A stretch of DNA of 64,000 nt, taken from the NCBI GenBank assembly GCA_026419785.1, contig JAODTK010005915.1:155001-219000 (forward strand), written 5' to 3'. Numbering within the stretch: position 1 is the first letter of the stretch; every line of letters begins with the position of its first letter. The stretch comes from Sclerodactyla briareus (lineage: Eukaryota > Echinodermata > Holothuroidea > Dendrochirotida > Sclerodactylidae). Below, piece by piece: positions 7,253 to 61,320 of this stretch. Under the pieces are notes generated by a model. The model searched no databases. It was not told where the DNA came from and saw only the letters and a program-made list of their open reading frames with translations. Position numbers and translations under genes: made by a program.

Positions 7253-7331
7253 GACAGTTTTAGTCCTTTCTCTCGTCTCGAATATGAGGATATATACAAA
7301 CATTCTAAAGTTAAACAGTGATTTATCAACA

Positions 7332-7467: not shown

Positions 7468-7677
7468 GTAAGTTTATATTTAAGCGTTTCGTAAGTTGGA
7501 ATTGCATTGTTAACTCTACCAAGTAAGAAATAAAAATTACGGAGAAGAATGCAATGCCTTATACCAATGAATCTCGTTCTCGTAGATATCCGAAACAACA
7601 CATTTTCAAAATACATTAACTTTCGACACGAAAGAACTCAGAAAATGTCGGTACCAGATAATCCCTACCGATTGCCA

Positions 7678-14341: not shown

Positions 14342-14941
14342 GTGGCGGCACAGCTCTATATAGGAGCCGTTCTCGGCAGCCTACTGCCAAGTATCGATGT
14401 TCACGTGCGACCGAGAGGAGGTCGGGGCATCTCGCGTACGCGCTAAGGGAGTCGTCGTGCGTACAGGCAGTCCCAAAGCAGCCAGCTTACACAGAGTCAG
14501 TACAGGCACTCCCAAAGCAGCCAGCTTACACAGAGTCAGTACAGGCACTCCCAAAGCAGCCAGTATACACAGAGTCAGTACAGGCACTCCCAAAGCAGCC
14601 AGCTTACATAGAGTCAGTACAGGCCCTCCCAAAGCAGCCAGCTTACACAGAGTCAGTACAGGCACTCCCAAAGCAGCCAGCTTACACAGAGTCAGTACAG
14701 GCACTCCCAAAGCAGCCAGCTTACACAGAGTCAGTACGGGGCATACGCACGGTCGAAGCGGTAAGGAGCCGGGTAAGCAAAAGTACTTGTTTTCGCTAGG
14801 GGAAACGCAGCACCGAGACGACGCCCGCGGAGCGCCTGCAGCACGTGCGCCTCGGGGCGTGGCGGCACAGCTCTATATAGGAGCCATTCGCGGAAGCCTA
14901 CTGCCAAGTATCGATGTTCCCGTGCGACCGAGATGAGGTCG
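14342..14941. repeat. 83-bp direct repeats with TATA box flanking a VNTR (TRIM-like or composite repeat)
   Basis: The sequence beginning GTGGCGGCACAGCTCTATAT at 14342-14423 recurs at 14859-14941 with only about six substitutions. Similarity stops abruptly at both sides of each copy. Each repeat contains CTCTATATAGGAGCC, a good TATA-box match, and TACTGCCAAGTATCGATGTT. Between them lie seven 39-bp units and G/C-rich linker. Short direct repeats bearing a TATA box around a small non-coding interior fit a terminal-repeat retrotransposon in miniature. No primer-binding site, polypurine tract or TG…CA end is evident, so a locally duplicated satellite is equally possible. Confidence 0.5.
14461..14733. 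repeat. 39-bp minisatellite, 7 copies
   Basis: Seven head-to-tail units of exactly 39 bases (GTACAGGCACTCCCAAAGCA + 19 more), with one to three substitutions and no indels between copies. Because 39 is divisible by 3, several frames stay open on both strands. The apparent long repeat proteins here (for example PKAASLHRVSTGT units) are therefore a by-product. Uniform unit length suggests recent expansion. Confidence 0.95.
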
Positions 14942-18445: not shown

Positions 18446-18925
18446 GTTCGTTCGGGATTCGTATTCGAGCAAATTCGAAAACCGTAAATGACGTAAGTGT
18501 CATATTTGGGATGTAGCCTTGTCATGTTGTTTTGGGGGTAGATCACCCCTATTTTTATGTAATGGGTCAAGTCAGCGAAAGGTAATGTTAGGGCCCAAAT
18601 CGATTCGGAATTCTTGGTCAATCGATCAAACTCGGAACCCTGTAAATGACATGTGACGTCATATATGGCATGTAGCTCCGTCATGTGGAGTAGATAACCC
18701 CTCTTTTTATGAATGTGTCAAGTTCACGAAAGGTAATGTAGGCCCAAATTCGTTCGGATTCTGTAATCGAGCAAACTCGGAAACCTAAATGACATGTGCG
18801 TCATATAGGGCATGTACCTTCGTCATGTGGAGTAGATAAACCCCTATTTTTTATGAAATGGTCCATGTCACGAAAGGTCATGAAGGGCCCAAAACGTTCG
18901 GAATCTTGTTATCGAGCAAACTCGG
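18446..18925. repeat. Tandem repeat, unit about 148 bp, just over 3 copies
   Basis: A recognisable landmark (GTTCGG…TCGAGCAAACTCGGAAAC) recurs at about 18447, 18600, 18751 and 18894. Each is followed by CTAAATGACATGTG…GTCATAT, GTCATGTGGAGTAGATAA and a CCCCTATTTTTATGAA block. Copies differ by many small indels, so the array is old. No coding frame persists. Confidence 0.85.
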
Positions 18926-18929
18926 ATAC

Positions 18930-20210
18930 AGTCCCTATAGCTTGTCAATTGCATCCCCCCACTTCCCTGGACAGGTTAGTCATTGTAGGGACATTGTCCC
19001 TACATGGTATCCTCACATGCTGGTCATTGTACCATATGTCCGTAATCACTAATGTGACTGGAGGGGTAAGTCTTTGCAAGCCATCGTTTAAATTGTCCAG
19101 CAGAGTAGTCTGTGGTCTATTAAAATGAAAGTAACGGAGGGGTGCATCATTTTGTTGACCCACCTAATTGCAATGACCCCTTGTCTGGAGTACTAGGGGT
19201 TTGTCCCTGACAATTGACAAGGCATAATTGTTTAAAAATACCTTGTATCAATAGCTATTTTACTAGTCCATCAAACATGTTTCTGCCATTTCTAGGTAAA
19301 CTTTTCACAAAGGATTTTTCAATCACATTTTTTCTCCTACATTGTGGGGTTGGGAATTTCTCTTATATGGCCCACCCCATGTAGCACCACCCATAACAAA
19401 TATATCTGGGCTGTATGATCATATAACCCATATCTAGGCCCCATAGATCTATAATAGAACAGACACGAATCTTTGCAATATTCTAGTGTGGAACATGACA
19501 TAAAGCCCTGTGAGACCTTTCTGAATGATGTGGGCTCATTTACAGTAATATTGCTCCAGTATGACTTTCTGGCCAATTGTTTACAATGTGATTAGTCCCT
19601 GGCAACCAATTTCCCCAAATAGTCCCATCATGTGACTGTCAAACCATGATAGAGAGGCACTGGGGAGGAGAAACCTCCTACCCATCTCTGCCTGGGGTAC
19701 AGGTTGAGTCTCACTTTTTGTTCAATGCGAAAAATGCCACAATAACTGTGCCCTTCCCCACTTTCAGAAGCTTACTGGACCCTTCTTTCCTTCTTCTCCC
19801 TTCCAACCCACCCCCTCGCCACTGTTTTTACACACACCACAGTTAATCTCCTTATTATTTCTTGTCACTACTAACACGATGTACCCAATTGGTCAATCTG
19901 CCTGTCCCAATTATTTTACATCCTGGAGTGTGCTTTTTTGCTGGTTCTAGGAAGTTTGGACTTTAGATGTAAACAATCCGATAATCGTAACCTAAGTGCA
20001 CACAGAACTATTTGGATTACACACTCTCAATCCTCTTATCCTTGCCAGTCTAGGCACTATTTCCACACTGAATGTCTGACAGCAGTTAAGTTTGCTTGTG
20101 CGTTTACCTCACAGCTCACACCCAACTTGAGCGATTTAATCCTTTGGGATTGGGACCGATGGTTGACCAGCAAATTGGCTTATAATAGTAAAAACACAAT
20201 GTGGGTTGAA
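18930..20210. other. No gene recognised
   Basis: Short phrases such as CATTGTAGGGACATTGTCCC (18983-19002, an inverted repeat) and CCCTACATGG suggest repeat-derived sequence. No frame has recognisable similarity. Confidence 0.4.
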
Positions 20211-20215
20211 AGTTT

Positions 20216-20590
20216 GTGGGCGGGGGAGTTCGAAGCGAAGAGGATTATGCTGGGCCAATTTTTATAGGTGTTTCTCGGACGTTCGCCTCGACCCGGCGTT
20301 CATGGAACCAAACACGTTGGTGTAGCACACAGCCTGTAATAGCTGGGCAGGCTAAGAGCGCGAAACCAGGAGTCACCCATCTCGTCGAACCTTCAGTTGC
20401 CATCTCCAGTGGAGATACTACCTCCCGGAAGAGCGCCCGGAAATCTGAGACTACGATGCCGTCGCAATCCTCCTACGTCCGAAAGTCACCCTCTTCGGTC
20501 GAAGATTCTGGACTCGTCTGGCCAGAGACGTGGTCACCTGCTCATTCCGGCCGGGAAAGTCGGCTGGGGTTAGCAAATCCAATCGATTGA
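20216..20590 (+). CDS. 124-codon G/C-richer ORF, Ser/Arg-rich, unknown
   Basis: The ORF stands out because its G+C content is clearly higher than the flanks. Its composition (Ser, Thr, Arg, Pro) looks like disordered coding sequence: SSGDTTSRKSARKSETTMPS and QSSYVRKSPSSVEDSGLVWP, ending LGLANPID. The first ~25 codons may not belong to it. There is no recognised domain. It could be a host exon, the ORF1 or gag of a retroelement, or chance. A splice donor was not evident at its end. Confidence 0.3.
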   Translation: MGGGVRSEEDYAGPIFIGVSRTFASTRRSWNQTRWCSTQPVIAGQAKSAKPGVTHLVEPSVAISSGDTTSRKSARKSETTMPSQSSYVRKSPSSVEDSGLVWPETWSPAHSGRESRLGLANPID

Positions 20591-40470: not shown

Positions 40471-40974
40471 TGGAGGGTTTAAGGATTTGTCGGGACGAAG
40501 AAAGTGGTGTTGTTGAAATAGGACAAATACCCTACGGGGGAACTGCCAAGGATGTCCTTAAATCCCGTTTTAAAGTTGTTTGTGCCTGCTGAAGTCTACT
40601 AGTCTAAAGTCGCGATTCGTGGTATCTCCCCAGGTTTGCCGGTCGGGTTGCTGATAGAAACATAGCGGGCCTAAAGCAGGTGTTGGAGTGGAGTGCGCTG
40701 GGCTGGGAATGAAGTTTGTGGACGTGTCGTTTTTCTGAGACGAGGAATCTTTTCCTAAGATGGTCCCTTCACTTATGGTCTGGGGCCCATCGGTGTTTAG
40801 GGAAGTTGGGTAATTCCTTGTGGACGGGTTGTTAAACTAGATTCCGGGGGCGAAGGGTATCAGGTTCCACTACGGCCAGGTTGTAAAAGTCGTGTCCCCG
40901 GCGACGGTGGTTGAACTAGGCCGGGCAAGCTATGTACTATTTGCGATAGGCAGATTAGCAAGCTGCATTTTTTC

Positions 40975-41690
40975 TCCGCTAATGTTCAATTATCAGGGAT
41001 AAATTTGATGAGTTCCGAATTTTGGTCCAGGAACGGAAGCCTGACGTAGTTTGGAATAACAGTCTTGTCTGAACAGTGAATTTTCTCAGGCGAAGTTAAC
41101 GTTTCCCGGTTAGGTTTGCTTATGGCATATCGGACAGATACTCTTCCTGTGGCCATTGGGGTGGAATTTTCGTGGATGTGATTCTGACTTCATAGCAGTG
41201 AGAGATCAGATATTTGTGTTAGTTATGTCCAATTCTGGTTTTGGTGTGAAATTCCGTCCAAAGCTTCAAGAATTCCCAATCCTTTATAGTCGGTTGTGTA
41301 TATCTCCCAACAGCTCTGAGAGCAATAACTCCTTTCTTTTTTCAAGTTCGGTACGCATTATTATGGTTTTCAATTATCCCAGTATTCCGTGGTCAGATGG
41401 TAGTAGTGTATGCCGGTTCCTGCTTTTTTGTAAATGTCCACCAAGATTGTTTCCTTTTCGCCGCATGTACATTTTCCTACTAGGAAGAATAATATCTTGA
41501 TTTAGTTCTAGTAGTGATCCAGGTTCCGTGGAATAATGTAGAAGAGTTTTGGTAAGCTTGGTGCAAGTGTATCACTTATATTATCGCTGTCGATGTGTCT
41601 TGTTCTTGCAATATTCCACAGAGCGTTGAGCTCGTTTCCTTGTGTCCGAGGAGGGCCGATCCTGGATGGCATTTCGGGTTTTTGAGTAAT
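40975..41690 (+). pseudogene. LINE family A ORF2: AP-endonuclease-like domain
   Basis: KFDEFRILVQERKPDVV (about 41003-41056) matches the region after the N-terminal catalytic Asn. SSCGHWGGIFV (about 41142-41175) fits the GGGVAIFV-type block. KFRPKLQEFPIL (41251-41290) and SPNSSESNNSF (41307-41340) match the YRPP-type region. The downstream GDFN-type and SDH blocks are heavily degraded (about 41360-41600). The domain would nick target DNA for target-primed reverse transcription; this copy cannot. Confidence 0.6.
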
Positions 41691-42254
41691 TTAGATTGGT
41701 CTCATTTTTCTAAGGAAAATTTGAATGCCGAGGACTCCTGAAAGGTTCATTGGCAAAGTTTAACGATTAATGGAAATTTACGTTCTTGCAGTCTTCCGCA
41801 CTAATAACAAATGGCCTTCTTGTATGGAAATGGAGGTGTTTCTGCCGTTAAACGTCAGAGACATCTTTTGGCGACTTTATCGTCTACTGTTTCTTCGTCT
41901 GGGGGGGGGGGGGAAAAAAAAAAAAAAAATTTTTAGATCAATTTTTTTTCAAAGTTCTCAGAGGCTTGTCAACCGTTTAGTTTCTGGTGCTTAGCTCGAT
42001 TTCGAGAGGCCGATTGCCTCTAATATAAAGGATAATCCTCGTGCATTTTTTCTCTTATGTTAGGGGTAAGCAGTAAATTGAAGACAGCATGGTCCCCCGT
42101 TCGTGTGTGATTCAGGTAATACAACCACAATAGTCATGAGATTGCTTAGCGTTCTTAATACCTATTTCTCGTCGTATTGACTGAGGAAAACTTGGATATT
42201 TCCAATGACCTTGTGGTAGTGTGCTCAATAAAACAATGGTAATTTAATAATTTC

Positions 42255-44330
42255 ACCCTGATGTGATAAAGGAGAAACTGCAGAAGCTCAAAAGTGGTGA
42301 GGCTCCTGGTCCCTATGGCTTTGCCCCCCTGTTGAAATCTTTCGCCGACCAGTTGTCTGTTCCATTAGCAATTATTTTCAATAACACCTTGCAAGAAGGT
42401 GTTGTTCCGGAAGAGTTGGAGAAGAGCAAATTTTTCTACAATTTTCAAGAGGCAACCGTTCTCTTCCTTGTAATTACGACCAGTGAGTCTTACGAGTGTG
42501 TCTGCAAGGTGTCAGATCCATCATTCGTGATCATATTGTCCGATTTCTTCATGAGTATAGTCAATTCGGGGTTCTCAGCATGTTTCAGGAAAAATGTTCG
42601 TGTTTGACTATCTCTTAGAATTTATGGAAGATGTTACTATGCAGTTGACAACGCAGTGCTGCTGATCCAATTTTCCTGACTCCAAAAAGCTTTTTACAAT
42701 GTTCCTCATGAGCCTCTCTTGCTTAAATGAAAAGTTTGGCATTACGGGGAATGTCCGTGACTCTGGAGTCGTCAGTGGCTTCTCAATAGGGAATGAGTTG
42801 TCATCAATGGGGCGTTCGTCTCACTTTGCAAAAAGTCCCATGGTGTTTCCCAGAATCGGGTTCATGGGCCTTACTTTTTTTTCTGGCGTATATTGACGAT
42901 CTGCAGACATTACAGACTCGCCCCTTGAACCGATGACATAGCTAATGACCTCCTTAACGACAGATGCCACCTTCTTGTGGTTTCTACCGCGGACTGGAAG
43001 TGGTTTTTTAATCAAATGAATGATTTAAATATTCGCTTCTCTCATTCTCATTGTCACATTCGGATCGCTGGCAAATGGTAGACTGAAATAAACGTTTCAA
43101 TGATCAAAATCTGTCAATTTTGCGCCTGAAACGATAGAATCCGAGTTTATCTGAATCCGTTCGAAAAGTGGATCTGTTGAAAATATTTTCATTTTCGGCC
43201 GTCTCCGTATTTTACGTTTCCTGTTGATTTTTTCTGAGAAAAATATATGTATCCCATACGATTTCCTCCAGACCATTTCATGTTTTCAGGTTTATCCTCC
43301 TCCACGTCGTTTTTTCGCGTTTCACGTTCAAAAGTCCGTTCCCAGTACAATTGAAACCACTTCAAGGTCAAATCCCAACTGGTCCAAGAAATGCTTCCTT
43401 GGGGGCAGCTGCTTGATATTTTTGTCCGTGAACCGGCCGATCGGCCGTTCACTTTGCCACCGTTCAAGGGGCTGGAAATTCTAATGGATTCGGTGCATTC
43501 CAGATTAAAAAGATTGCAGACGATACCAGTTGCATCCGGGTTTGCTTCGAAGGATGTTGCAATTGTCCAAAGGATCTTGTTGAAAAAAAAAAAAAAATTA
43601 TAATTCTCCACTGGTCTTTCGATTGGCAAATGTTTTCATTGCCATGCAAAGTGCAAAGTTATGCATGATTGTTTCCCAATCGCAACGCTTCTTCAGTTGA
43701 ATGTCAAAATATTCAACAGGTGAATTCAGAAGAGAATCTCGTGTTCATTTTTATTCTTCTTTGAAACCTTCTAAGCAGTGTGCTGAGCTTCGAGTAAAGG
43801 TAACTGAATTCTGGCTTTGATTTAGACCGTCACTACCTTCAGTTTTCCTCGATAAATATATTGTTGTCAGGTTGGTTAAGCAGCTTGTGAGACCTACTTG
43901 GAGTATGCTGTGCCAAGTCTGAATCCATATTTCTCGAAAGACCAGCAATTAATTGAAAACGTTAAGCAGAGGGCTACTAGAATATTTAGCTGTCTGAGAG
44001 ATTTACCATACGAGCAAAGATTAAGGCGTCTCATTCAACCCGATGGACAGGGGAACGAATTCGTGTGATTTGATTTCAGATTTTTCAAATTGTTCACGGT
44101 TTCGAGGGCCTTTCCTTCCACTATTTCTTTGAGGTTCCCAAAAGTTAACCACCAATAGGGGTCATTGTCTCAAGCTTCGTGGCAAAAACGCTGAGAGTGG
44201 ACATCGGAATATTTCTTTTCTCCTAAGAGTTATTAATGAGTGGAATAGCCTCTGAAATGCCTGTTCTGTTCCTAAGAGTGTGAAGCATTCAAAAACAGTT
44301 TCTTGATTTATTTTTCAGAACTGTGGGCGA
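42255..44330 (+). pseudogene. LINE family A ORF2: reverse transcriptase
   Basis: The RT opens with IKEKLQKLKSGEAPGPYGFA (42266-42325) and LSVPLAIIFNNTLQEGVVPE (42350-42410), the classic start of a jockey-superfamily RT. Further on are GFRKK-like and PQGSVLG-like remnants, FLAYIDDL (about 42880-42903), a degenerate ADDT box (43511-43522) and WSFDWQM (43612-43632). Then come thumb blocks, PYFSKDQQLIENV (43926-43965), DLPYEQRLRRL (44000-44030) and the C-terminal NEWNSL-like block (44236-44255). Over ten frame changes are needed. The catalytic Asp pair can be seen, but not in a continuous frame. Confidence 0.8.
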
Positions 44331-48539: not shown

Positions 48540-48812
48540 TTTAACCTACAACAACGTCAGCTCAGCATAGGACTTACGTTGGATTTCCGGGCCTATGTTT
48601 GTCCGGTCAAAGCGTTCGAACATACCACTTGGTGAAGATCCCTGACGCAGGTAATGACATACGTTGCGGTTCCAGGCAGTCCGATCTCCCCATATAATCC
48701 CAGTAGAATCTTTATGTTAATACAGCATTTAAGACACTGTCTGCAGACCCTAGATACAGAACAGTCGTTTTCCCACTTAATTAAACGCTGCCTGTTAGAG
48801 GTGGCACATGCT

Positions 48813-48880
48813 AGTAGTATGTAAAATGGTGATCTTGCTCATTCACCCCAAATCACCAAGGTCTCTCTGAAAATAAGTAT
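48813..48880 (+). repeat. Polinton left TIR
   Basis: Starts AGTAGTATGTAAAATGG, then ATTCACCC, AAATCACC and GTCTCTCT blocks in the same order and spacing as the reversed right end. Just inside, TTCACC…AAGGTCTCTCTGAAA is repeated once (48843-48902), a local duplication of about 40 bases. Confidence 0.8.
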
Positions 48881-49084
48881 GGTTCACCCAAGGTCTCTCT
48901 GAAATACTTATACGGGAATTGGGACTCAGGTCTAAATCCAATAACAACTCGTGTGAAACACCATCCGTCCTCGTGTATGTACCCTCTTGTGTTCACATGT
49001 GGACTAACGATTAAATGAATCTGGATTAAGGAGGGGGGTTCCCAACTCCATGTCCACCATCTATATCTTTGTTAATAAATCAAC

Positions 49085-49345
49085 CTGACGCTGAATTCAT
49101 ACATTTTGAATACAGCTCCTTTTTTTTGTTTCTCTAGAGCTGCTTGTACTAGTTTATCATTCTCTGTTACAGGATGCTCTTCTAATACTTTCTTTCAATT
49201 TCATGGAACTGCCAGTTCTTTGGTAATAAGTAGAAATCTCTTCTTGACTGATTAGAAAGCACCATCATCCAGATCTCGTTAATAAATTCCACAGTAGTAA
49301 TTTTAGTTTTTGATTCTGCCAAATTCTCATTTCATTATGTTTTTT
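49085..49345 (-). pseudogene. Polinton: small minus-strand protein, unknown
   Basis: Two minus-strand frames read like real protein with one frameshift between them. The first is TTVEFINEIWMMVLSNQSRR (about 49250-49310) with FYLLPKNWQFHEIE following. The second is EEHPVTENDKLVQAALEKQK (about 49120-49190) with GAVFKMYEFSV at its end. The amphipathic, lysine-rich second half could be helical. No family name can be given. It is the leftmost recognised gene of the element and reads toward the left TIR. Confidence 0.45.
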
Positions 49346-49364
49346 AGTTTTAGTTTCATCCAAT

Positions 49365-49520
49365 CAGTTTTTTTATTGAAAACATTTGTTGCCAACACAC
49401 TAACACCACAACAATAGCAACACCTTCCCCGAGCAAATCCCCGTGAAGTCTAACTCACCAATAGCTGCAATACTGAAGGCGCCCGCAACAACTCCCCCAC
49501 CTCTGCGAACTGGTTTTCTA
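49365..49520 (-). pseudogene. Polinton: Gly/Ala-rich membrane-segment fragment
   Basis: Minus-strand ITTPRKPVRRGGGVVAGAFS continues into IAAIG, and in a shifted frame GVAIVVVLVCWQQM. A basic Pro/Arg stretch before glycine- and alanine-rich hydrophobic segments suggests a small membrane-active or capsid-associated protein. Only about 50 codons are readable. Confidence 0.3.
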
Positions 49521-49559
49521 GGTGTAGTTATGTATTAATAATTTGTTACACTCTTTATA

Positions 49560-51300
49560 CAAGGGGAACTCTTTATCTCTTTCAGCTTCTATCAGTTTTC
49601 AATATCATCAATTTTTTTAGTCTGAAGTACCCTCATTCTGCGGTTACTTTGGGAGAAATGTTTTTTGTAGCTCCGTCATTTAATTTATTCGTTTTATTTT
49701 TTAATAGTCGTCTGTTAATTTTGTACTACATACCCAGAATTATCACCTAAAAGGTTGCAATAAACATTCATACCCTCATTGGGGCTACCAAAACACAGAC
49801 CACACCCTATGAACATAACTGTAATACTCCTGAACCATTCATTCGGCTCTATACATTTTTCAGAGAGATAGAATGTGTATTATTTGTAAAATCAATTCGT
49901 GTAGTTATCTCATTGGGTCCTAATTGTTTTTTCCCTATAGAGCCAAACATCTAGCCATTATGATCACTATCACATAACCCTAGGCTGTTTGATGAAAATT
50001 AACCCAATATAGTTATCCCATGAAGTCATTAACAGAATTGTGTTACAACACAAAAATCATTTTGGTACATTTTCCCAATAGATTTCATCATTCACTAATC
50101 ATACTACTCAATACCCATTGATTTTTGAATTCATATTGCATGTTGCTAATTGTATTGGAACTTCCGAATATACTCATTTTATTTAACATTAGTTATTTTT
50201 AAAGTAATTACAATCAGTGGCAAGCAGAGCCCTTTATTATTAATACATTACCATCTGATCTTTGATCCGAATTCATTTCATTAATTTAATGCATTTTCCA
50301 ACGGTTTTTTCAATTTTATGCTCCATTCTGTATGTATCCTACTTCCGTAGTATGGGGGTCATTACCCATGGAATGACACCCAACAATTTAGATGGTTTTC
50401 CGTTATTATATTATTGGTGGAAGAAATTTGATCACAGTGTGAATAATAGCTTGGAATGGTTGCATGTCCACTTTTCAATGTGTTTCACCCCACACAACCA
50501 CTCTGTATTAAGTGCAAAAAGCCTTGCATATCTTCAGAAAATTTAATATCTTATTTTTCTGGAACTGCAAGTTTCAAATTCCCATTGTATGTATTGACCT
50601 TCATCACCACCCAAAAGAATATAATTGTTATCAAACTATTCACCGTCGAATCCACATTGTAAAGGCCAGCCGCAATGGAAAATTCACTTAACAGGCTCAC
50701 TCCGCAACCCTTACATAATTTATTTCCACCTTTAGAAATATTTAATAACCTATCCAAAATATAGCTGATTTCAAGTCATTTTAATTTCCTGCCCTTTGGT
50801 CTATAGTATTGTTTCCAAGTCAAATGACTTTTCAAATGTTTGAATTTCATAAGTATGATTCATTCATTTAGATATTGATTGTTTTTATAAACACAACATC
50901 CACACGCATTACCACCACATTTCAAAGCAATTATTCAAAAAGATACAAGTTAGTAGTATATATCACCACCTGTAATAAAGGGCCTTTGCGCAAAACAGAC
51001 TTTACAAGTCAAACTATACATTTATCAAATACTGACACATTTGACATCGATCTACCAGATTTATGTGAAATTATTATTACCACACTCCATCATGAGGTCT
51101 ATAACGATTGAACTCAAACCCGATGCCATTTTGGCAAAAATCAACTCACTTTGTAATTTGTGTAGCCCTCAGGATGTGGTTCAGCTATGACCACCTCCCC
51201 ATACAGACAATAGAATTAGAAGCTTTTATAGGTTTCAGTCTATTATCTGTGTCTAAGGCTGCTACAGAAATGATTTGTCCCCCACAACCATTCTAATCCT
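49560..51300. other. Polinton interior, decayed, gene content unresolved
   Basis: Short coding-like minus-strand pieces are present: GNKLCKGCGVSLLSEFSIAA (about 50665-50730) and GGQIISVAALDTDNRLKPIK (about 51215-51285). Plus-strand frames at 50262-50546 and 50875-51111 are open too. I could not decide which strand is genuine or match a Polinton family. An integrase or ATPase may be hidden here but no Walker A or DDE signature was seen. Confidence 0.35.
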
Positions 51301-52320
51301 TATACGGCATGGATCATAATATCGACATGTCCGCACATATGAGACATATGTCATCGTTTTCATGTTTCACAGAAACCAAATTGGAAGCAACCGTCAAGAC
51401 CCATATAAGTGTATACATGCCCTGCTTATGCGGGGAATTCAATTGTATTAGACGGTAAATTAGACACTAGTAGTTTACACCACTACCACATTAAGGGTAC
51501 ACAGATGGCAACTGTAATGGCTTTTGGTATAAAAAAAAAAATCACCCCTCGTACAGCTAGATACACCGTTTCTCACCTTCTCAGGTAACAAGTAGAAGTC
51601 GCTTGGAGAGGGTTTGTCCCTCCACAATCAGAAGTTTTAACAGATATGGCACGAAGACACTCAATGATGGCATGAGAACTTTTGTTTTTATTGTATTTTA
51701 GGGGCGACAAACCTCAAACAAAACCGTTTTTTCGACACCTTGGCACATCTCTAGATGCTAAACGACGACGATTTTTGTCTAGATTAAGAGGTTTGGATTA
51801 TTCTCCAGTAGATTTACACAGTAGTTTTAAATCGCTATCAGCTCACTGCAATATGCTCGTTAGCAAAGTAGACTTTGTAGTTGGTCCAAAATGTTTACAT
51901 GAATGCCTACGATCTAAACTTGAGGATTGGTACCCATATAGGTTTTAGAATGAGATTCAAATAGCCCCAGAACACACCGCACTCGGTACTAATGATTTAT
52001 TTTTAAATACTGCGGGTGTTAGAAGCTGCGAGCCACCACCTGTTTAGTGACCCTGTAAGTGCGTTTGATGATATGACTATCGAATGAACCAATTGCAACT
52101 TCCACTCCACCTAACATTTGTATGGATTCAACTAAACCTTGAATCCACAACTACATTAGCAACACCAGCTCACAAATATCCGATCTGCCAGTGAACATGC
52201 AAAAATGACACCCTTGCCATCATCGTTGGGGTTACTGGATTGCAAGTATTTCATATATACTTCATGATGTACTTAAATATCTACTTCCGGATGTTTATTC
52301 AAGTAAATAACTACCGAAGC
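51300..52320. other. Polinton interior, coding-like in places, unresolved
   Basis: An 88-codon plus-strand ORF at 51682-51948 (LDAKRRRFLSRLRGLDYSPV…) and minus-strand pieces such as LLTPAVFKNKSLVPSAVCSG (about 51985-52045) compete. The position, between the membrane protein and the left genes, would fit a minor capsid (penton-like) gene, but no motif proves this. Confidence 0.3.
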
Positions 52321-52329
52321 TTACAACCC

Positions 52330-52756
52330 ATAACAAATGTCCCACACATTTTCTGCCAGCCCTCCAACAGCCCCCATAATTTAATAGCCAGATAAAAACC
52401 TCCGATGATGCCTGGCAGGTGCATTCAGCAGTTTAGAACCTAACTTTCCCAATACATTTGCAACTTTTTTAGAATATCTTTAATCTGTTTTGTTTAATAC
52501 CACCACTCGGGGTTGGACTTGGTTTTGGGTGAGGGGTAGGCACAACACTTTCAAACACCGGCTAGGCTGCTTACAACACCAAGAGGGCTAATACTAATGC
52601 TATAGCCGTTAATATACTACCACGGTTACACCATTGTTCTCTAATAAAATTCTTACTTTTTTCCGATAGTGTCCGTATCTCTTGGGGGTTTAAAATTGAT
52701 TGATATTTCTTTCTTCTGTTAATCTGCCCACGCAGTGCTCGTTCAATGCCTATCAT
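52330..52756 (-). pseudogene. Polinton: membrane/minor-virion-like protein (minus)
   Basis: The minus-strand start is MIGIERALRGQINRRKKYQS, a basic helical N-terminus, then about 25 residues to a strong transmembrane segment GSILTAIALVLALLVL (52571-52620). A Pro/Thr-rich linker (PTPHPKPSPTPSGG, about 52500-52545) follows. Then comes a second part with KVANVLGKLGSKLL and, after a frameshift, a hydrophobic Gly/Ile/Leu segment (about 52385-52430). This layout resembles small membrane proteins found in Polinton-like elements. Function is unknown; at least three frame breaks. Confidence 0.5.
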
Positions 52757-52769
52757 TTATACTTTGCAA

Positions 52770-53547
52770 GCTTCCAATCCTACACCACTTCTTTCATTTC
52801 CAAGTCTTTTATTTCTTGCTTTGATTTCTTTTTCAGCTTCTCCATTTCCTCTCCTCTGTGCTTTGCGCTAGATTATCTTGTTCCAATAATATAACATTTT
52901 GCTAATTCTTTCAGTTTGCCAAATTATTGACAAGCTCACCACGAGATTTTTTGTAGAGTTTCATCGATAGCTAGTCGTTTCTCTCATACTAAGATCGTTT
53001 GGGTATCAACTGTCACATCCCCTGTGCTAGCTAACACATTATCGATAGTGCTTTCATCTCACCTTGTAATGAATTGATCAATCTCAATTTAGCAACTTCT
53101 GGCAGTTTTCTTCCTTTCAATACTCGTAGTCAGAGGCATATGTTATTGCTAACTTTTTGGTGGCTTGTTTGTAGTCAACAAACCCCTTTTTATTTCCGTA
53201 TAGTATTTAACTTCAATTGTTTTAATCATAGGAACTTGCTTTTATCTTTTACCTGAGTTAATGGTTTATATCCTTTATCTGTTTTACTACCAATCACCAC
53301 CCTCAAGTTTAAATTATCATAATTTTAACATTTGGGATTAATCCTATTTTCTAGCAGCTTTAGCATAGAAATCATCTACTTGGTTCTTTTCAACTGTATC
53401 TTGCTCATTCAAAGACAATCCACTACTTCGTCCTAGATTTTCTTATTTGATCATCATTGTCTAAATGTTGTCTCATCAACATATCTTCCAGATGCGGGAT
53501 TTTCTTTCTTCCCTCCTCCATCATCATCCACTTAGAATGTCATCCAT
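52770..53547 (-). pseudogene. Polinton: coiled-coil protein, first gene of the leftward set
   Basis: Begins at ATG 53547 on the minus strand (MDDIL…). It has a charged region (KKIPHLEDMLMRQHLDNDDQ, about 53447-53510) and SSGLSLNEQDTVEKNQVDDF (about 53375-53435). Later it contains YKQATKKLAITYASDYEY (about 53115-53170) and ends in a Lys/Glu coiled coil, EEMEKLKKKSKQEIKDLEMK (about 52795-52855). It is directly divergent from the capsid-like gene, so the two probably share a promoter region. About 255 codons if continuous; six or more breaks. No named family. Confidence 0.5.
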
Positions 53548-53705
53548 TTTTTTTAAAAGTAATGTTGTATTTAAATAAATGGCAAACGCACTACGGCCAC
53601 AAATGTGAATGCCTCCCGAGAAATTACGTCATGCATTGGGTGTGAAGTATTAGAACCAATCTGTTGTGCTCCACGAACAACCCCAGCACAATTGATCAAA
53701 ACCAA
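53548..53705. promoter_or_regulatory. Divergent intergenic region of the Polinton
   Basis: About 160 bases lie between the leftward coiled-coil gene and the rightward capsid-like gene. T/A-rich sequence (GTTGTATTTAAATAAATGG, 53563-53581) could hold TATA-like elements for both directions. No defined promoter motif was proven; the assignment follows from gene orientation. Confidence 0.35.
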
Positions 53706-54839
53706 ATGTTACCGGTTAGATTTCCAAATTTCGGTGTAGATGATGTCATAAAACCCGTACAACCAACTTGCTTTAACATTGATTAGTATTCTACCCGGAT
53801 TGCACAATCAGAACATTGTCCCAATCTTGGTATAGCAATGGTAAAAAAATAAGTGTTCAAATAGAAGGCAATGAACTTATTCCCTAGACGATCAGATGTG
53901 TACAACTGCTATAGCGATTATGGGTTACCCAAGCGCGGCTCAGTAATAGGTATCAGAGTCTTTGTAATGGAAATACATTGAAATTGGGAGTTTGAAGCAT
54001 GCAGGTAGTGATGGCGAGTCGAACGATGGTAAATATAAAGCTATTGCCGATGCTATGGGAAACGATTTTACATTCCTCAGGAATTTGAGCTGCTGACTAA
54101 TCATAGCCCTATTATAGTTTGGCCCTCAATGACCGTCTGAGTTATGATTACCATTTAATGATTATGGTCGAGTGATTAAAAGCACGACCAGGCGCTAGTT
54201 ATAAAATAGTGGAATTCAGTTGAATACGACACTGTTTTGCTATGCAAGCTAGCTAGAATGACATAAACCATATTCAAACAAACTGGCTGTACTTTATGAC
54301 AGAGTAGAGACCCAAACATACCATTAAACGAAAGATATACAACTTGGAATATTAATCTGAACACCCAGCAAAAAGCATGAATGGTATACTCATGGTATTG
54401 AGTACCCCTGAAAGTGGCCTAATTATGCTATAGACACGAGTAAGTTTTACAATCCAAAAATTAATAAAGTAACCATTACTATCAGTGCATTCTAGCAGTT
54501 TATGCGCAAGGCAATGCACAGATATCAAGAACCATTGGTGAAATTGTAAAACATTTTTGCAGGCATAGGCATTGTTAAAGAACTGAACCTTCTGATGTAT
54601 CTCTGTCGGATTATTTGAAAGATAAATACGCTCTTTGGTTTCGACATGAGAAGCCAGTGATGATAATACAAGTCACGGGTAGTTGGTAGAGAATGAATAA
54701 TGGTTCTGGAAGGTATTTTCATTCAACCGGACAAGAGCAAGCAGCGGGAACTCTAAACGCTAGATTTATGTTGTCATGGATCACAGCTCATATTAAGAAT
54801 TGTAGATTTAGTTCAGCACCATTTTTAAAATTAAAATAA
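53706..54839 (+). pseudogene. Polinton major-capsid-like (double jelly-roll) protein
   Basis: The frame from ATG 53706 reads MLPVRFPNFGVDDVIKP, then after breaks: NLGIAMVKK (about 53830-53850); SDGESNDGKYKAIADAMGND (54009-54070); LAVLYDRVETQ-like (about 54285-54315); FTIQKLIKVTITIS-like (about 54445-54485); and SLSDYLKDKYALWF (54599-54640). The end is AAGTLNARFMLSWITAHIKN (54738-54797) and TAA at 54839. These blocks, in this order and in about 375 codons, match the major capsid protein conserved in animal Polintons and adintovirus-like elements. It would form hexon-like trimers in a virion. At least eight frameshifts or stops disable this copy. Confidence 0.75.
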
Positions 54840-54849
54840 ATATAGTTAA

Positions 54850-55390
54850 ATGTTGTTCCCAAAGAATCCTCATTCGGCACTCGTATCGCGGTTCAAACGG
54901 GTGTGAAAACAGAAGTTTGTGGTTCAATCTATTAGACATTATACAGAGATTATTTTGAACACATTCGTACTACATTGTCCCAACCCTAGCATGGAATAAA
55001 GCTTATAACACAGAGAATGGGTCTGGCAGATTCTGACGTTTCATCTCTTGGATCTACCAAACTAACATGGACCTCATCAAGAGCTCTTACGAACGTTCAA
55101 AGGTGATGAAAACGTTATATCATAGATATTGTGCTGCAACTAACTAGGTGTCATTAAAAAACCATAAAATTCTACATGCATGTTCAGCGAATTAGCGTTT
55201 ATTGGTAACAGGCCCATTCACAAAGTTTGTTGATTTTTATCACAAAATGTAATAAGTGTTATGAAGATTTTTATAGAACAGACAAAATGGTTGTGTTTAC
55301 TTTATTCAAAGATCGTGATTCATACGAAAATTGCTTGAAAGAAAATGCTGTCATTACGGATCAAACACTAGGCGCAAAAACTGAATGAAA
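54850..55390 (+). pseudogene. Polinton: small plus-strand gene remnants
   Basis: Two coding-like stretches follow the capsid gene. The first is YRDYFEHIRTTLSQP then MGLADSDVSSLGSTKLTWTS (about 54945-55080). The second is KCNKCYEDFYRTDKMVVFTL then FKDRDSYENCLKENAVITDQ (55250-55370), with a CxxC pair. They may be one gene or two. No family was recognised with confidence. Confidence 0.4.
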
Positions 55391-55469
55391 ATTTTAAATG
55401 CAAAAAAACATTCAAAACTTTATAACTACTTAAAACAGATCAACCTACTAGTTACAAGGTGTTGTAGAT

Positions 55470-55632
55470 GTTAAGAACTTACAAGTTCTTGTAATAAGTA
55501 CTTCCAAGTTAGTGTAATAAGTACTTACCGTTATTGGTAATAAGTACTTACCAGTTATTGTAATAAGTACTTACAAGTTATTGTAATAATACTTACCAAG
55601 TTTTGTTAAGACTTATCAGTTATTGTCATGAT
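55470..55632. repeat. Tandem repeat with AAGTACTT palindrome, ~24-28 bp unit, ~7 copies
   Basis: Units of the type GTAATAAGTACTTACCAGTT recur from 55477 to about 55620 with small indels. The 8-base palindrome AAGTACTT makes each unit a potential small hairpin. It sits between two plus-strand Polinton genes and might serve as a terminator or processing signal, or simply be a minisatellite. Confidence 0.8.
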
Positions 55633-55754
55633 TACCTATTTTTACCCACAATTATCATTATCAGCTTATCATATTTCTAATTTTCAGTAGTATATATATT
55701 AAATAAAACATATCAACTATTCTATATAAATATCTCCCTCTATTAAGTACAACC

Positions 55755-56350
55755 ATGGATGAGTTAGCAACCAATTATACCGAAGATGTGAAGACCAAAA
55801 GCCTGTGTTGATAAGCAGACTTCGCACCGTCATTAATGGTGGTGATTCCGTTAAATTTTTGAGAAAACATTATACCTTGCAAGTTCTCGAACATTGAAAA
55901 TAGAAGAACTTAAAAATTACTTTTAGATACGACGCGAATTTGGTCATGAGATAATCAAGTCAATAGGTCGACTACATTAACAATTTTTGTTAATGCTCTT
56001 GTTATGGATTAGCAGATTAATGAAATGGATGATGTTGAAGCTTTAACTAAAGAATTAGAGAATGTTCCACTAGTCTCAATGCTTTATCACAATTTTTTGT
56101 GTGAGCTTAATTATAAATGTGGAGTAATCTTAGCTCCACTTGCTGCTCGAACTTATAACTGCAAGACAATGTTTCAATTAAAATATAGTGATACTTAATA
56201 TACATTGAACCAAGTGGATCACAGGACAAAGTGATCACATGAACACAAGTGGAGGGGGAGGAACCTCAACAAGTTAAACAACAAGTACTTAAAGTTAAAC
56301 GAAGAGAAAACCCAGTAGAAGTTGCTGCAGGAAAAAAACTTCCCAGAGTA
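55755..56350 (+). pseudogene. Polinton: small basic-tailed protein (plus)
   Basis: ATG at 55755 (MDELATNYTEDVKTK) is followed after breaks by PVLISRLRTVINGGDSVKFL (55807-55862), INEMDDVEALTKELENVPLV with SMLYHNFLCEL following (56015-56115), and APLAARTYNCKTMF (56136-56175). It ends in a charged tail, VEGEEPQQVKQQVLKVKRRE then NPVEVAAGKKLP (56252-56345). The acidic start and strongly basic AAGKKL tail recur in small Polinton-encoded proteins. Role unknown; a DNA-binding or scaffold role is only a guess. Confidence 0.45.
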
Positions 56351-56839
56351 CAATAGAAAAAAAGGAAAAATACTGAACGAATCACAACATACTACAGATG
56401 ACGGTGTGAAGTTTGATTACTTGTCCTACATCGGGGCAGTTGTAGTGGGCGGTTTTTTTTAACAAAGTTAAAAAACTCCTAAAGTGAAACCTTAAGTCAT
56501 GTAGGGTCTGAAGCAGTTGACCCTTTCCATTTCGAATAATCAATTAAAAAAAAAAATAGGAATAATACAAATGTCGATCAGTAATTGATAATATCGTAAA
56601 AACTGTATATCACGGAGCACATGGTTGGTGAGTATAAGTATTGTATATAGCATGCTTGCGAGTTAAATGCTAAAAAATTAAAACCGACGATCTTGGTAAA
56701 CTGGAGGTCAACGATTGGTTTCAAATGACTGTACGTTAGCAGTGCACTAGTAACACAAGGATGATGGTGAATCAGGGTATACTACCCGATAAAATTATAA
56801 AGCCAACCCACTTAAAGAAGAAAAAAGGATAATAAAAAT

Positions 56840-57200
56840 GGCAACAATAGCTAAGCTGGGAGGTAGGTGATGCGATTATAAATGCCGTGGCTTTTAGTGG
56901 TCCAATTTCTATTTTCCAATCTAAAAGATGGGGCAGAGGCGCAGAAGAGAATGTAGAAAAGGCAAACGATTTAGCTTTAGAACAACTCAGCCGAGAGAAG
57001 CAAACAAAATGGACCGAAGAAAGACTCAACAATCTGGATTAATTAATGGAAACTATTGCAAAGAGAAGGTCCTCAAAGCAAACTTTTCGAACCTCGAGTG
57101 CGAACTATGCAAGAAAATACACATCCTGACAGGTCAAATGTATGATTACCTGAAAATTCGAAGCGTGAACCGATGCTGAGTGATTTTTATACACCCAGTA
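56840..57200 (+). pseudogene. Polinton: conserved membrane/coiled-coil protein (plus)
   Basis: NAVAFSGPISIFQSKRWGRG (about 56880-56940) gives a hydrophobic segment. The helical, charged DLALEQLSREKQTKWTEERL (56970-57030) follows, then NLD…METIAKRR and, after a frameshift, LSDFYTPS (57176-57199). The order hydrophobic segment, QL-x-W-x-x-x-R-x-x-x-LD helix and SDFYTP is characteristic of a conserved, functionally unassigned gene seen in animal Polintons. Two or more frameshifts. Confidence 0.6.
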
Positions 57201-57875
57201 GCCACTGCACAGAACACAATAGTGCGCAATTCAGTGGCTAAAAGAGCCCCAGCCTTGTAAAAAGGTTAAACAAAAAGTGAACTCAATTACGGAACAATTG
57301 TGGGCGTGATAATAATCAACAAGCGTTTTATTAATCTCGAGAAAAAATCTGAAAACAACAATACAAAAAAGTATTAAAAGAAAGGTTGGAAAAATTCGGG
57401 AGTAATATTTCTTATCACTGTAAAGAATGATAAAAAAGGTTTAAACAAATGAAAAAGATATACAAGAGGAGGTACCTTATTTTTAAAATTGTCAAGCTTT
57501 TACAGTTTGGAAAGTTGCAGAATTGGCAATCGTATGTTAAACACAATTATGGGCTTTACCAGAGACACCATCTAGGAAGAGAGGATTATTAAAAAAGATT
57601 ACCACAAAGCCATAGTTGGCAACATAAATCTAATCGGAAGCAGTTTCATACATGGGCAATATGCAGACTGAAATAAGTTGAACATAATAATAGGCTTACC
57701 GAGGCACCATCGGGTAAAGGTTTGACACAGAAACTCATATTGATAGAAGGTCCGGAATTGGGTGTGGGGGTTGAGGAGTGGGTAGGAGTTGCCAAACAAC
57801 CATCCACTAAACAGCATAAAAGCTAAAGTAAAAACGAAGACTGATTGAAGAATATGAGAAATTAGGAAGTTTCAA
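57200..57875. other. Polinton interior between small gene and polymerase
   Basis: A phrase GGCTTTACCAGAGACACCAT (57551-57570) recurs in diverged form at 57692-57711 (GGCTTACCGAGGCACCATCG), suggesting a partial duplication of about 140 bases. Readable pieces (SREKI…, LTEAPSGKGLTQKLILIEGP at 57696-57755) are not recognised. Confidence 0.35.
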
Positions 57876-57879
57876 GTTT

Positions 57880-59830
57880 TAACAAATTCTCTTTCTGTTG
57901 AAAATAAATTAAAAAAAGAAAAACCAGATGGAACTGTTGAGGTGCTGAGGGTGTATTTTAGAAATGTCCAAAAAGTGATGTGAACCAGGGTGGAATGGGA
58001 TGCTAAATTACACACAGCAGAATCTGAATACTCGAAATGATTGAAGAATAGACAAATCAAGGTGCGGGGTTTATAGTCGAAAGAGTTCCCTAAATTTGAC
58101 TCTGAACATTGGTCAAATATTAACCATATTCAAAGGTGGGTCTTACATTATTTACCTACAAAATTGAAAAATAAACAAGCTATATTAATGTTGAAAATAA
58201 AGATGATGACTGTTTAAGGAGGGCCTTAAGAAGTTATGTATTTCCAGTATGTAAAAGCTCAGAGAGACAGCAGTTATCCAATAGATGATGGATTAAATTT
58301 TGATGATTATAAGTGCTACAACGTCCTATGTCACAAATACCAAAAGTAGAAAGCCAAAACGATTATCTATTAAGTATTCGTGGGAAGGTGGTGCGGGTGT
58401 GCCATATCAGATTTTGAATCATCAGAGTACAAACGAGATTGATTTTAATGATCATTGAGCAAGATAATAAATAAACATTACACATGGATAAAAAAGTCCC
58501 AAGCGTTATTGAACACTCAAAGCCAAAAACAAGAGCAAATGGTATCCTTGTCGAAAAGGCCTACCACATTTTTCATAGAGGATCTTCTTGAGGGGCACAA
58601 GGAAGACTGTATCGAAATCGGAGACAGAGCATCAAAAAATTGTAATGCTGAGAAATGGCGCGAAAGAAAACTAAGACTCCTGAAGAAAACAAAATGGGTG
58701 GTGGAAAACAATGAGTTAAAATTTAAAATCACGCTGACGGTGACAGGTTCTTGTCATTTTGAATGATTTTGAATGTATTCTAACCGAGATTTCGGGGTGT
58801 TGTGATAATCCCGATAAATCAACTACGCAGAATCCCTCACAAACAGATGTTTCTAGTATTGTACATCTTTGTAAGATGTGATGGAAATGGTAAGCCAAAG
58901 TTTCCAGAGGACCAAAATTTGCGCTGAACATTTTCATAAGAAATCTCTCGAAAAATATACTGAAAAAATTAAGATAGTATTTGAAAAACCGATAAAACCT
59001 CTTTTGTAGACATCGGCATGATAGTGAGACATGAAGTGCAACACCTTGTCATATCTGTAAAAAAGAATTTAAATGGGAATGTTGGAAAAGACCATTGTCA
59101 CATACGGGAGAATATAGAGGTGCAGCTTACGATTACTGAATCTCAAAATTAAAAATACAAACGGATAAAACTGTCATTCCGTCAGTTTCACAATTTAGGG
59201 GCTTGGACTCTCATATGATCATGCAAGCTGTTAGTACGTCATAGGGGAAAATGGTGTATACCTCCAAACCAATAGGGAGCCATATTTGCCTTCAACATGG
59301 GCAAGTAAGGATGTATGAGACCCTCAAATTCCTCAATTCCGTCTATTAGACAATTTGGTAAGGAATATCGCTAAAACAGCCTTGAGGATAAATAGGGAAG
59401 ATGGCATTAGAATTTTTGTTAATTGGAAATGAAAAGGGTGTTATCCATATGAGTACATGATAGTTTGGGAAAGATTTGGCGGAAAAATGCCTTCCCCTCA
59501 AGAAGCATGTTACAGTTCGTTGAATGATAAACACCATCACTTGATGATGGATGACATGCCCAAAAATGTGTGGAATACTCTTGAATGTAAAAAACTTCGG
59601 GTAATATCACGATCCATACCTGAAAAACCTGATGTGTTGTTTATTGGCGGATGTTCGAGGATTTTAAGAAAAAATCTTCAGAAAACTACAGACTTAGATC
59701 GGCCATAACTATACTCTCCCCGGTTTCAGTTGGATGTTCTACTTCAAACATTCTGGAAATTAGAATACGAGTTACTCCAACTGAACGCAAACACGTTTGT
59801 AGTTACAAGTACATTAGAGAGACTGGGTGA
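57880..59830 (+). pseudogene. Polinton DNA polymerase B, N-terminal and exonuclease part only
   Basis: Ordered blocks on the plus strand are: KEKPDGTVEVLRVYFRNVQK (57915-57975); LPTKLKNKQA and DDDCLRRALRSYV (58150-58245); and a zinc-binding-like region EDLLEGHKEDCIEIGDRA (58577-58630). A CHICKKEFKWEC pair of cysteines (59047-59082) and TGEYRGAAYDYC (59103-59138) follow. HNLG…LDSHMIMQAV (59189-59232) is the exonuclease I-type region. Last are YEYMIVWERF (59450-59480), SSLNDKHHHLMMDDMPKNVW (59513-59573) and LDVLLQ (59730-59748). These match the protein-primed family B polymerase of Polinton/adinto-like elements. The palm and thumb motifs (SLYP, YGDTD types) are absent because the gene ends at the right TIR. 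Numerous frameshifts. Confidence 0.75.
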
Positions 59831-59873
59831 TTTTGGGTGAATGAACCCCCGGATCCCCATTTTACATACTACT
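59805..59873 (-). repeat. Polinton right TIR
   Basis: Reverse complement begins AGTAGTATGTAAAATGG (59873 down to 59857), followed by GGGGTTCATTCACCC, AAAATCACCC and GTCTCTCT. Alignment to the left TIR needs a few short gaps. The last recognisable polymerase codons lie at its inner edge. Confidence 0.8.
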
Positions 59874-59906: not shown

Positions 59907-61320
59907 GTTCCCAGGGTTCAATTAACATTGTGTCCAAGTTTGGTGACATCCGTCAAAGGAATGGGACTGTCGGGGCCGAGAGGCAATTGTTGAAACACTG
60001 GATAGGAAGAGTGATAGGACGGTTGGGCCAAGTGGGTACTCCGACCAAAATTCTGAAAAGCCTGTAGGTATGGCTGATCCCATCATTATGATGTCGAACA
60101 TCAGCACGGGCACCAATATGTAGAGAGGAGGAAGCATTTTTGCGTTTTGGAACACACTCCAAAATTGCCTAGAAACCCCCCCCCCCCCTGAAGGTGCGGC
60201 TATTAGGCCATCATATGAGAACATCAGCCACTGACCGTGCGTAAAATTTTGTAGAAGCAATTTTGATTTTAACAGGTGATTTTACATGATGGGCCTAGGG
60301 CCCACATGGGCTTTGAGGTCAGAAGTTCGCAAAACCCAACCCCTGATGGACAACTAACAAGGAGCATTACATGTAACTTGAAGAAGGAACTGGGAAGAAG
60401 ATGATTTTCAAGTACCAATGTGTAACAATTCCATGGGAATACTTAATACAATGGGCCACCGGGCCCAAGTGGGACATTGGATCAAAAATCCTGAACACCC
60501 CCAAATACGAATGGTGACCACATTGTCACCGAATGTCAGCCACTGTGCACCAAAACTTGTAAGAGGAGCATTTTGCAATAGAATTCCACAGATGGCCTCG
60601 GGCCACACTCGCATTGGTCCTAAATTCCTGGGCACCTGAAGGTATGGATAGTAGAACATCTTATTACCGAACATCAGCATTAGTGCAACTAAATTGGAGG
60701 AGCTACAATATTTTGCGGTATTTCACATAATGAAGCCATATGGGCCCAAACTGGGCCGGCGGCCCAAAAATTCCTAACAACTCCAATTGGCCCTACACCC
60801 AAGGACCATTACGTGGGACTTTGAAGAAAGAACATCAATGAAGCTGTGGGAGGAGCTGCATTTCAAGCCCGTGTGTGAAAATATCTAGAATGGGCCCTCG
60901 GGCCCAAGTTGGACATCGGGACCAAAATTCCTGAACCACCCCGACCATCATTATGACGAACATCAGCAATGTGCCCCAAAATTGTAGGAGATACATTGTG
61001 AAAAATTTACACATAAGGCATATATTTGCCCCTGTAGTAAACCTTTTGGACCTTAACTCAAAGGTCAGAATGTTCATGGGTCAAGGACACATTGTATGTT
61101 GGTTCGACATCCAGCACGGCATGACCGTTTGGAGGCAAAAAAGGAAATTGTGACAGGACAAGACAGACAGACAGAAAGACGGACAGATAGATAGATAGAT
61201 CGAGTAGGATTTTTAGAGAGATAGATAGAGTGACATGCAGATTCCATTAGCTCAACCAGCATAGCTGGTTTGAGCTAAAAAAAAAAAAAAAAAAAAAAAA
61301 CCGAGCATCGTAGCGGTGTT
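59907..61320 (+). mobile_element. Modular repeat ending in microsatellite and hairpin (non-autonomous element?)
   Basis: A motif GAACATCAGC…CACCAAAATTGTAGGAG recurs in diverged form at about 60087, 60222, 60533, 60669 and 60957. GGGCCCAAGTGGGACATCGG-type motifs occur before several copies (60462, 60755, 60898). The series ends in an (ACAG)n/(GATA)n microsatellite (61158-61205) and the inverted repeat TTAGCTCAACCAG / CTGGTTTGAGCTAA (61249-61278), then an A run. This is typical of invertebrate non-autonomous elements with a tandem core. No ORF is meaningful. Confidence 0.6.

What the first reader, a model, noticed from the sequence alone, without database searches (positions are those of the whole stretch)
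48813..59873. Whole Polinton/Maverick-type element with both ends in place
Inverted terminal repeats beginning with the same 17 bases (AGTAGTATGTAAAATGG) bracket an 11-kb block. Independent coding evidence for a major-capsid-like protein and a protein-primed DNA polymerase B lies inside it. Ends of AG…CT type and divergent gene blocks are known for Polintons. Finding capsid and polymerase genes inside one defined pair of ends in an otherwise repeat-rich animal contig makes this a concrete endogenous virus-like element.
Basis: partly seen in the sequence, partly recalled or inferred. Interest (0 to 1): 0.85.

Follow-up and report, generated by a model that had tools for sequence, protein, structure and literature searches.

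The report
Fossil, internally deleted Maverick DNA element
This is a decayed and shortened copy of a virus-like mobile DNA element of the Polinton/Maverick kind, one of many dead copies in this genome; it is real but of an ordinary, known kind.

Summary
The inverted ends are real: 48813-48868 and 59816-59873 align far above resampled controls. The 17-base tip occurs 20 times in the 319-Mb host genome, its reversed control 0 times. AGTAGT//ACTACT is the commonest tip of vertebrate Mavericks (PMC8097293). A Polinton-type PolB lies inside: 265 of 266 tblastn rows of 121 PolB proteins fall at 57956-59801, E down to about 3e-26. All 17 sibling copies fetched align to parts of the block. "Whole" is wrong. 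The longest open frame is 110 codons. Siblings carry two segments that this copy lacks: about 1.2-1.3 kb at 57198 and about 1.3 kb at 59802-59815, the latter holding the polymerase half of PolB. The first may have encoded the integrase (weak: rve_3 E 0.0057). A Walker A motif in 5 of 8 siblings marks a P-loop ATPase near 54.9 kb. The capsid claim was not confirmed; the test lacked power. No target-site duplication at this copy. Verdict: a fossil, internally deleted Maverick; ordinary.

The parts
48813..48868 (+). left terminal inverted repeat, the part that still pairs with the right end; begins AGTAGT. Right ends of siblings align to 48812-48989, so the family TIR is about 160-177 bp
   Evidence: sibling alignments
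59816..59873 (-). right terminal inverted repeat, 58 bp left; its inner part is missing compared with siblings
57956..59801 (+). PolB remnant (N-terminal part and exonuclease region; ends before the polymerase motifs); reads toward the right end; no long open frame
   Evidence: tblastn of 121 PolB proteins, best blocks 58753-59268 and 59346-59765; range and counts; pieces 59433-59705 and 58452-58763 by profile
59802..59815 (.). deletion junction: siblings carry about 1.3 kb here (C-terminal half of PolB and inner TIR)
   Evidence: 9 of 9 siblings fetched from the PolB end have PolB C-terminal matches ending about 115-310 bp from the tip; segments cut from 3 siblings are 1,296-1,329 bp and have no blastn match in the window
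57197..57199 (.). deletion junction: siblings carry about 1.2-1.3 kb here, possibly the integrase
   Evidence: segments cut from 8 siblings align in all 28 pairs, 71-79%; 11 of 17 siblings, the query's own included, hold a 600-bp part; segments of 3 siblings have no match in the window; rve_3 E 0.0057 in L033:4761-5042:+
54850..54990 (+). site of a P-loop ATPase (Walker A) by position in siblings; the motif is not readable in the window copy
   Evidence: 5 of 8 covering siblings keep G-x4-GK[ST]; 500 base shuffles mean 0.012, maximum 1; translations
48990..54700 (-). left gene block, probably reading toward the left end; products not identified; coding-looking pieces at about 49.0-49.7, 49.7-50.2, 50.25-50.85 and 52.4-53.4 kb
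   Evidence: GC and AT skew negative at 48-54 kb and positive at 54-60 kb; pieces from copies judged by eye
55472..55626 (.). 23-bp tandem array (6.9 copies) inside the element

Best explanation
A fossil Polinton/Maverick. A linear virus-like DNA with short inverted ends and two gene blocks (PolB and an ATPase reading to the right, unidentified genes probably to the left) inserted into the host genome, as did many relatives. The family would have copied its DNA with its own PolB and integrated with an integrase (inferred from the known family, not shown). This copy then decayed: stops and frameshifts throughout, and two internal losses of about 1.3 kb each that took the polymerase half of PolB and, possibly, the integrase. 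No intact gene was found. Shown: ends, family, PolB, losses, decay. Inferred: integrase identity, ATPase role, capsid genes, way of replication.
For: TIR alignment; 20 exact 17-mers in the host genome, 0 for the reversed control; 47 matches to the first 101 bp with 40 of 92 candidates scored; 17 of 17 fetched siblings align to the block; PolB; 54 PolB matches in the genome with 45 of 241 candidates scored, 53 of 54 with stops inside; Walker A in 5 of 8 siblings; ends as in vertebrate Mavericks; no significant codon-position periodicity among copies in any of 37 segments of 300 bp (lowest p 0.089); a pair of tips 13.77 kb apart on the same contig, close to the block plus its two missing segments.
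Against: No 6-bp target-site duplication at this copy (1 of 6 bases). No capsid, protease or A32-ATPase family among the families listed (25 of 26 shown in 96), one weak A32 match in the genome, elsewhere. The 30 genome-wide rve matches lie no nearer than about 35 kb to a PolB match. The reference ATPase scored its best piece only at E 1.3. Non-PolB proteins of the two viral relatives match nothing here. Several siblings are rearranged inside.
Confidence: 0.92

Rival explanations
1. The two ends come from two different insertions, or the locus was rearranged after insertion, so the block is a chimaera rather than one element with internal losses.
For: No target-site duplication: CATGCT against ACCTTT, 1 of 6.
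Against: Most siblings follow the window's order and orientation over long stretches. Of 5 other pairings of tips, not proven to be single elements and two sharing one end, flanks agreed at 5 of 6 (C2166), 4 of 6 (C2966), 1 of 6 (C628) and twice at 0 of 6 that become 5 of 5 after a one-base shift (C3158): fossil copies here often lack a clean duplication.
Confidence: 0.1
2. A shortened, non-autonomous derivative that spread in this deleted form, driven by full-length relatives.
For: Both ends survive while the catalytic part of PolB and the possible integrase are gone.
Against: 9 of 9 PolB-end siblings keep C-terminal PolB matches and 11 of 17 keep part of the 57198 segment. The other 6 of 17, fetched only in part, were not tested for the junction, and the genome was not searched for it.
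Confidence: 0.08
3. An endogenous adintovirus or another PolB-bearing virus lineage rather than a Polinton/Maverick in the strict sense.
For: The same PolB kind occurs in viral contigs L069 and L070; L069 also has an A32-type ATPase and an rve integrase.
Against: The ends match the Maverick motif; nothing beyond PolB matched L069 or L070. The line between these groups is partly a matter of naming (recalled).
Confidence: 0.2
4. Chance inverted repeat around unrelated repeats.
For: One of 100 whole-window shuffles had two near-matches to the 17-mer.
Against: TIR score and genome-wide copies with interior similarity.
Confidence: 0.01

Closest known systems
Vertebrate Mavericks (PMC8097293; sections 6 and 7 read, other passages by term search)
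   Same: (AGT)2//(ACT)2 ends; TIR of 58 bp here and about 160-177 bp in siblings, within 46-1,447 bp; expected full length about 13.7 kb, within 12,723-24,620 bp; PolB and ATPase in one block; blocks on different strands; most copies degraded (96% there)
   Different: The blocks seem to point away from each other, which that paper reports for Rhinella marina, whereas most point to the centre; the possible integrase lies next to PolB, on its strand in most siblings, not in the capsid block; this copy is 11.06 kb with two losses and no target-site duplication
Viral contig IMGVR_UViG_3300028392_002905 (L069)
   Same: PolB of the same kind; also a Pox_A32-type ATPase, an rve integrase and a capsid candidate
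   Different: Its genes are open; its non-PolB proteins gave no match to window or siblings
Polinton-like PolB proteins from public contigs (P0112 and others, best 120 of 7,024)
   Same: About 28-38% identical to the window remnant over some 85-185 residues
   Different: Open, most of about 1,250 residues; 3 of 4 scanned carry an Endonuclease_7-like segment

Membership tests
Polinton/Maverick | Terminal inverted repeats with a short repeated tip such as (AGT)2//(ACT)2 | tested here: met
   in 8 of 8 copies similarity ends at or within 6 bases of AGTAGT; motif from PMC8097293
[quoted passage not shown]
   Homology clear, but only the N-terminal part and exonuclease region are left in this copy; siblings retain broken C-terminal parts. 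Protein priming itself not testable
Polinton/Maverick | 6-bp target-site duplication | tested here: not met
   This copy: 1 of 6 bases. At family level inconclusive: 5 pairings gave 5 of 6, 4 of 6, 1 of 6 and twice 0 of 6 with a shifted match of 5
Polinton/Maverick | Retroviral-like integrase | tested here: inconclusive
   Segment absent from this copy; in siblings rve_3 E 0.0057, 16.8 bits against a cut-off of 26.5, in 1 of 145 pieces
Polinton/Maverick | Genome-packaging ATPase | tested here: inconclusive
   Walker A in 5 of 8 siblings; no Pox_A32 hit in the element; 3 Walker A pieces scanned singly gave no Pfam family
Polinton/Maverick | Double jelly-roll major capsid protein | tested here: inconclusive
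   No significant hit; the test lacked power; genome search with the capsid candidate did not complete
Polinton/Maverick | Adenovirus-like protease and minor capsid protein | tested here: inconclusive
   No such family among those listed for 291 pieces (146; 145, 25 of 26 families shown); no dedicated reference searched
Polinton/Maverick | Two gene blocks on different strands | tested here: inconclusive
   Skew reversal near 54 kb and PolB and the ATPase site on +; the left block's strand rests on skew and on pieces judged by eye

The most novel reading that the evidence does not exclude
A Maverick lineage with a rearranged plan: both gene blocks read outward, and the integrase sits between the ATPase and PolB on the PolB strand instead of in the capsid block, suggesting that the integration gene moved between modules; in two siblings (L022, L026) the stretch with it is inverted, so the plan may still have been shifting.
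Probability: 0.33. Interest if true: 0.35.

Novelty: new member of a known kind. Interest (0 to 1): 0.22.

Why it matters
It documents a family of dead Maverick copies in one 319-Mb genome, with defined ends and a measured divergence, useful for repeat annotation and for dating a past wave of insertion. It warns against calling such an element whole because both tips survive. If the gene order holds, it adds a case to the record of module rearrangements in Mavericks.

Tried and rejected
The guess that PolB continues beyond the right end (an L013 match at 60826-60933, E 0.77) was dropped: of 266 PolB rows at E up to 0.01 none lies to the right of the block. Codon periodicity as a gene finder gave no signal. 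The A32 ATPase family over the whole genome gave one weak match, outside the element. The 30 genome-wide rve matches were compared by contig with the PolB places; five contigs are shared and the nearest distance is about 35 kb. Viral-contig searches with the PolB piece, the integrase piece and two patterns gave nothing useful; the 12 contigs were chance matches. A protein search with the 91-residue PolB piece found nothing and the phage collection held no relative of P0112. L080 and L081 ended at contig ends. The whole-genome search with the capsid candidate did not complete, nor was the structure prediction. Identities guessed by eye for left-block pieces rest on recall and are not claimed.
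Full report
What was claimed.

The ends. AGTAGTATGTAAAATGG stands at 48813-48829 (+) and 59857-59873 (-) and nowhere else in the window with up to 3 mismatches; 1 of 100 shuffles had as many matches. The pairing goes on for 56 and 58 bases; its local score is 37 against a mean of 11.4 (sd 2.0, maximum 19) for 300 resampled pairs. In the host genome (319,486,128 bp in 3,171 contigs; the window is C3158:155001-219000) the 17-mer occurs 20 times and its reversed control 0 times. In the 8 copies similarity to the window ends at or within 6 bases of AGTAGT. A search with the first 101 bases gave 47 matches at E up to 10, with 40 of 92 candidates scored, so a lower bound. AGTAGT//ACTACT is the commonest tip of vertebrate Mavericks (PMC8097293, section 7).

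The family. For 17 of the 18 exact tips outside the window's element I fetched up to 10 kb inward (the tip at C2159 was left out because only some 450 bp remain inward). All 17 align to the block, mostly at 71-81% identity over long stretches; several are rearranged or interrupted, for instance L022, L025, L026, L027 and L037. Mean K80 between window and siblings is 0.150 (17 pairs, 0.112-0.176), and 0.196 between siblings (100 of 136 pairs, those with at least 800 shared sites); the latter is measured through the window alignment and is probably inflated. Of 37 segments of 300 bp none shows significant codon-position periodicity among copies (lowest p 0.089), even within PolB, as expected for neutral decay. 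I give no age in years: host and mutation rate are unknown.

PolB. A viral PolB (L013) brought in 120 listed relatives out of 7,024. Against the window, 121 PolB proteins gave 266 tblastn rows at E up to 0.01; 265 lie inside the block, from 95 of the 121 queries, spanning 57956-59801; one lies at 7254-7484, E 0.005. The best blocks are 58753-59268 and 59346-59765, with combined E down to about 3e-26. Two window pieces hit a PolB profile on their own, 8.1e-10 and 2.8e-5, among 61 of 3,324 pieces at E up to 1e-3. Against this: Pfam did not recognise these pieces, a protein-database search with the 91-residue piece found nothing, nor did viral contigs, and solved structures gave only unrelated weak matches. 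PolB reads toward the right end and stops there: by my offset the matches reach about residue 567 of the 1,023 of P0112, before the polymerase motifs at 604-613, 772-777 and 867-871 of the reference alignment.

What this copy has lost. In 9 of 9 siblings fetched from the PolB end, PolB matches run on into the C-terminal region and end about 115-310 bp from the tip. The segment that the window lacks there is 1,296-1,329 bp in the three siblings cut out; the inner TIR is gone too, as right ends of siblings pair over about 160-177 bp with the window's left end. A second segment of about 1.2-1.3 kb stands at position 57198 in siblings. Cut-outs from 8 siblings align in all 28 pairs at 71-79%; 11 of 17 siblings, counting the one the query came from, hold a 600-bp part. 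Neither segment, tested from three siblings, matches anywhere in the window. The block plus both segments is about 13.6-13.7 kb; two tips on the same contig lie 13.77 kb apart, with a further possible partner at 22.5 kb.

Other genes. At 54.85-54.99 kb on the PolB strand 5 of 8 covering siblings keep an exact Walker A motif, against a mean of 0.012 and a maximum of 1 in 500 base shuffles; 6 of 3,324 pieces have the motif at all, 4 of them here. The 8 are those with at least 120 aligned positions in 54800-55000 and no long insert; the window copy is not among them and lacks the motif. I looked there because one piece had caught my eye; the L069 ATPase ranked that same piece first, though only at E 1.3. 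Three pieces with the motif gave no Pfam family. The missing 57198 segment may have held the integrase: one sibling piece has an rve_3 match at E 0.0057, 16.8 bits, below the cut-off of 26.5. In a batch of 145 proteins about one such E-value is expected by chance, so the weight rests on position and on a conserved-looking motif judged by eye. Comparison with the L069 integrase gave E 0.36; solved structures and viral contigs gave nothing. The piece lies on the PolB strand in the 8 PolB-end siblings and in L024, but the stretch with it is inverted relative to the left end in L022 and L026, so its place in the ancestral order is not certain. The left block probably reads on the other strand (skew; pieces); none of its products was identified.

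Capsid. L069 and L070, the two viral contigs with this kind of PolB, carry capsid candidates, so called by me: neither has a Pfam family and they share only a 50-residue match, E 4e-5. None of their non-PolB proteins matched the window or siblings. A profile from 111 relatives of the L069 candidate had its best piece at E 5; tblastn with the 111 gave E 0.022 and 0.031 in two siblings and 0.068 in the window outside the block, which I take as chance. The profile scored the intact L070 candidate only 16 bits, so absence of a hit means little. Structure prediction did not complete, so the capsid identity of the candidate is not shown here.

Target-site duplication. This copy has none: CATGCT against ACCTTT. 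Five other pairings of tips, not proven to be single elements and two of them sharing one end, gave 5 of 6, 4 of 6, 1 of 6 and twice 0 of 6 that become 5 of 5 after a one-base shift.

Conclusion. A fossil Maverick with both tips preserved, the catalytic half of PolB and possibly the integrase lost, and no intact gene found. Its family would have worked as Polintons/Mavericks are thought to (inference). Membership is supported by the ends and PolB; the duplication is not met in this copy; integrase, ATPase, capsid, protease and the strand of the left block are inconclusive. The gene order may differ from most vertebrate Mavericks, which is the one point of mild novelty. Papers: of PMC8097293 I read sections 6 and 7 and passages; of PMC12721341 passages only, not used here; other papers were seen as search listings.

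Noticed in passing
window 48813-59873 against L022-L038: Differences between copies have a transition/transversion ratio of only 0.43 (84,676 sites) and 7.1 gap openings per 100 aligned sites; six other repeat alignments on the same loci give 0.74 (4,053 sites). Cause unknown: host mutation spectrum, alignment or base quality.
   Followed up: partly
L022 and L026: In these two siblings the stretch matching window 55.4-57.2 kb, with the possible integrase, is inverted relative to the left end; in L026 the order resumes at 57198, the place of the window's own deletion.
   Followed up: partly
G000:C3158:5336-19104 and 27819: Another copy of the same family on the same contig, ending about 185 kb before the window's copy; two possible left ends, both preceded by ACATG.
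   Followed up: partly
window 55472-55626: 23-bp tandem array (6.9 copies) inside the element.
   Followed up: no
window 41357-44246: Another dispersed repeat, shared with L032 and, at 40943-42048, with L025; a 118-codon frame at 42251-42604 looks like a reverse-transcriptase stretch by eye (recalled, not tested).
   Followed up: no
window 14461-14737: 39-bp tandem array, 7.1 copies at 96% match, within open frames of 163-207 codons in three frames.
   Followed up: no
window 5717-6277: 187-codon frame that looks like a Harbinger-type nuclease by eye (recalled, not tested).
   Followed up: no
window 18923-20198 and 20364-20557: Further dispersed repeats, found in L027 and beside the L021 copy.
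   Followed up: no
P0122-P0241: Most of the 120 listed relatives of the L069 capsid candidate come from contigs of about 1-5 kb, short for Polinton-like viruses.
   Followed up: no
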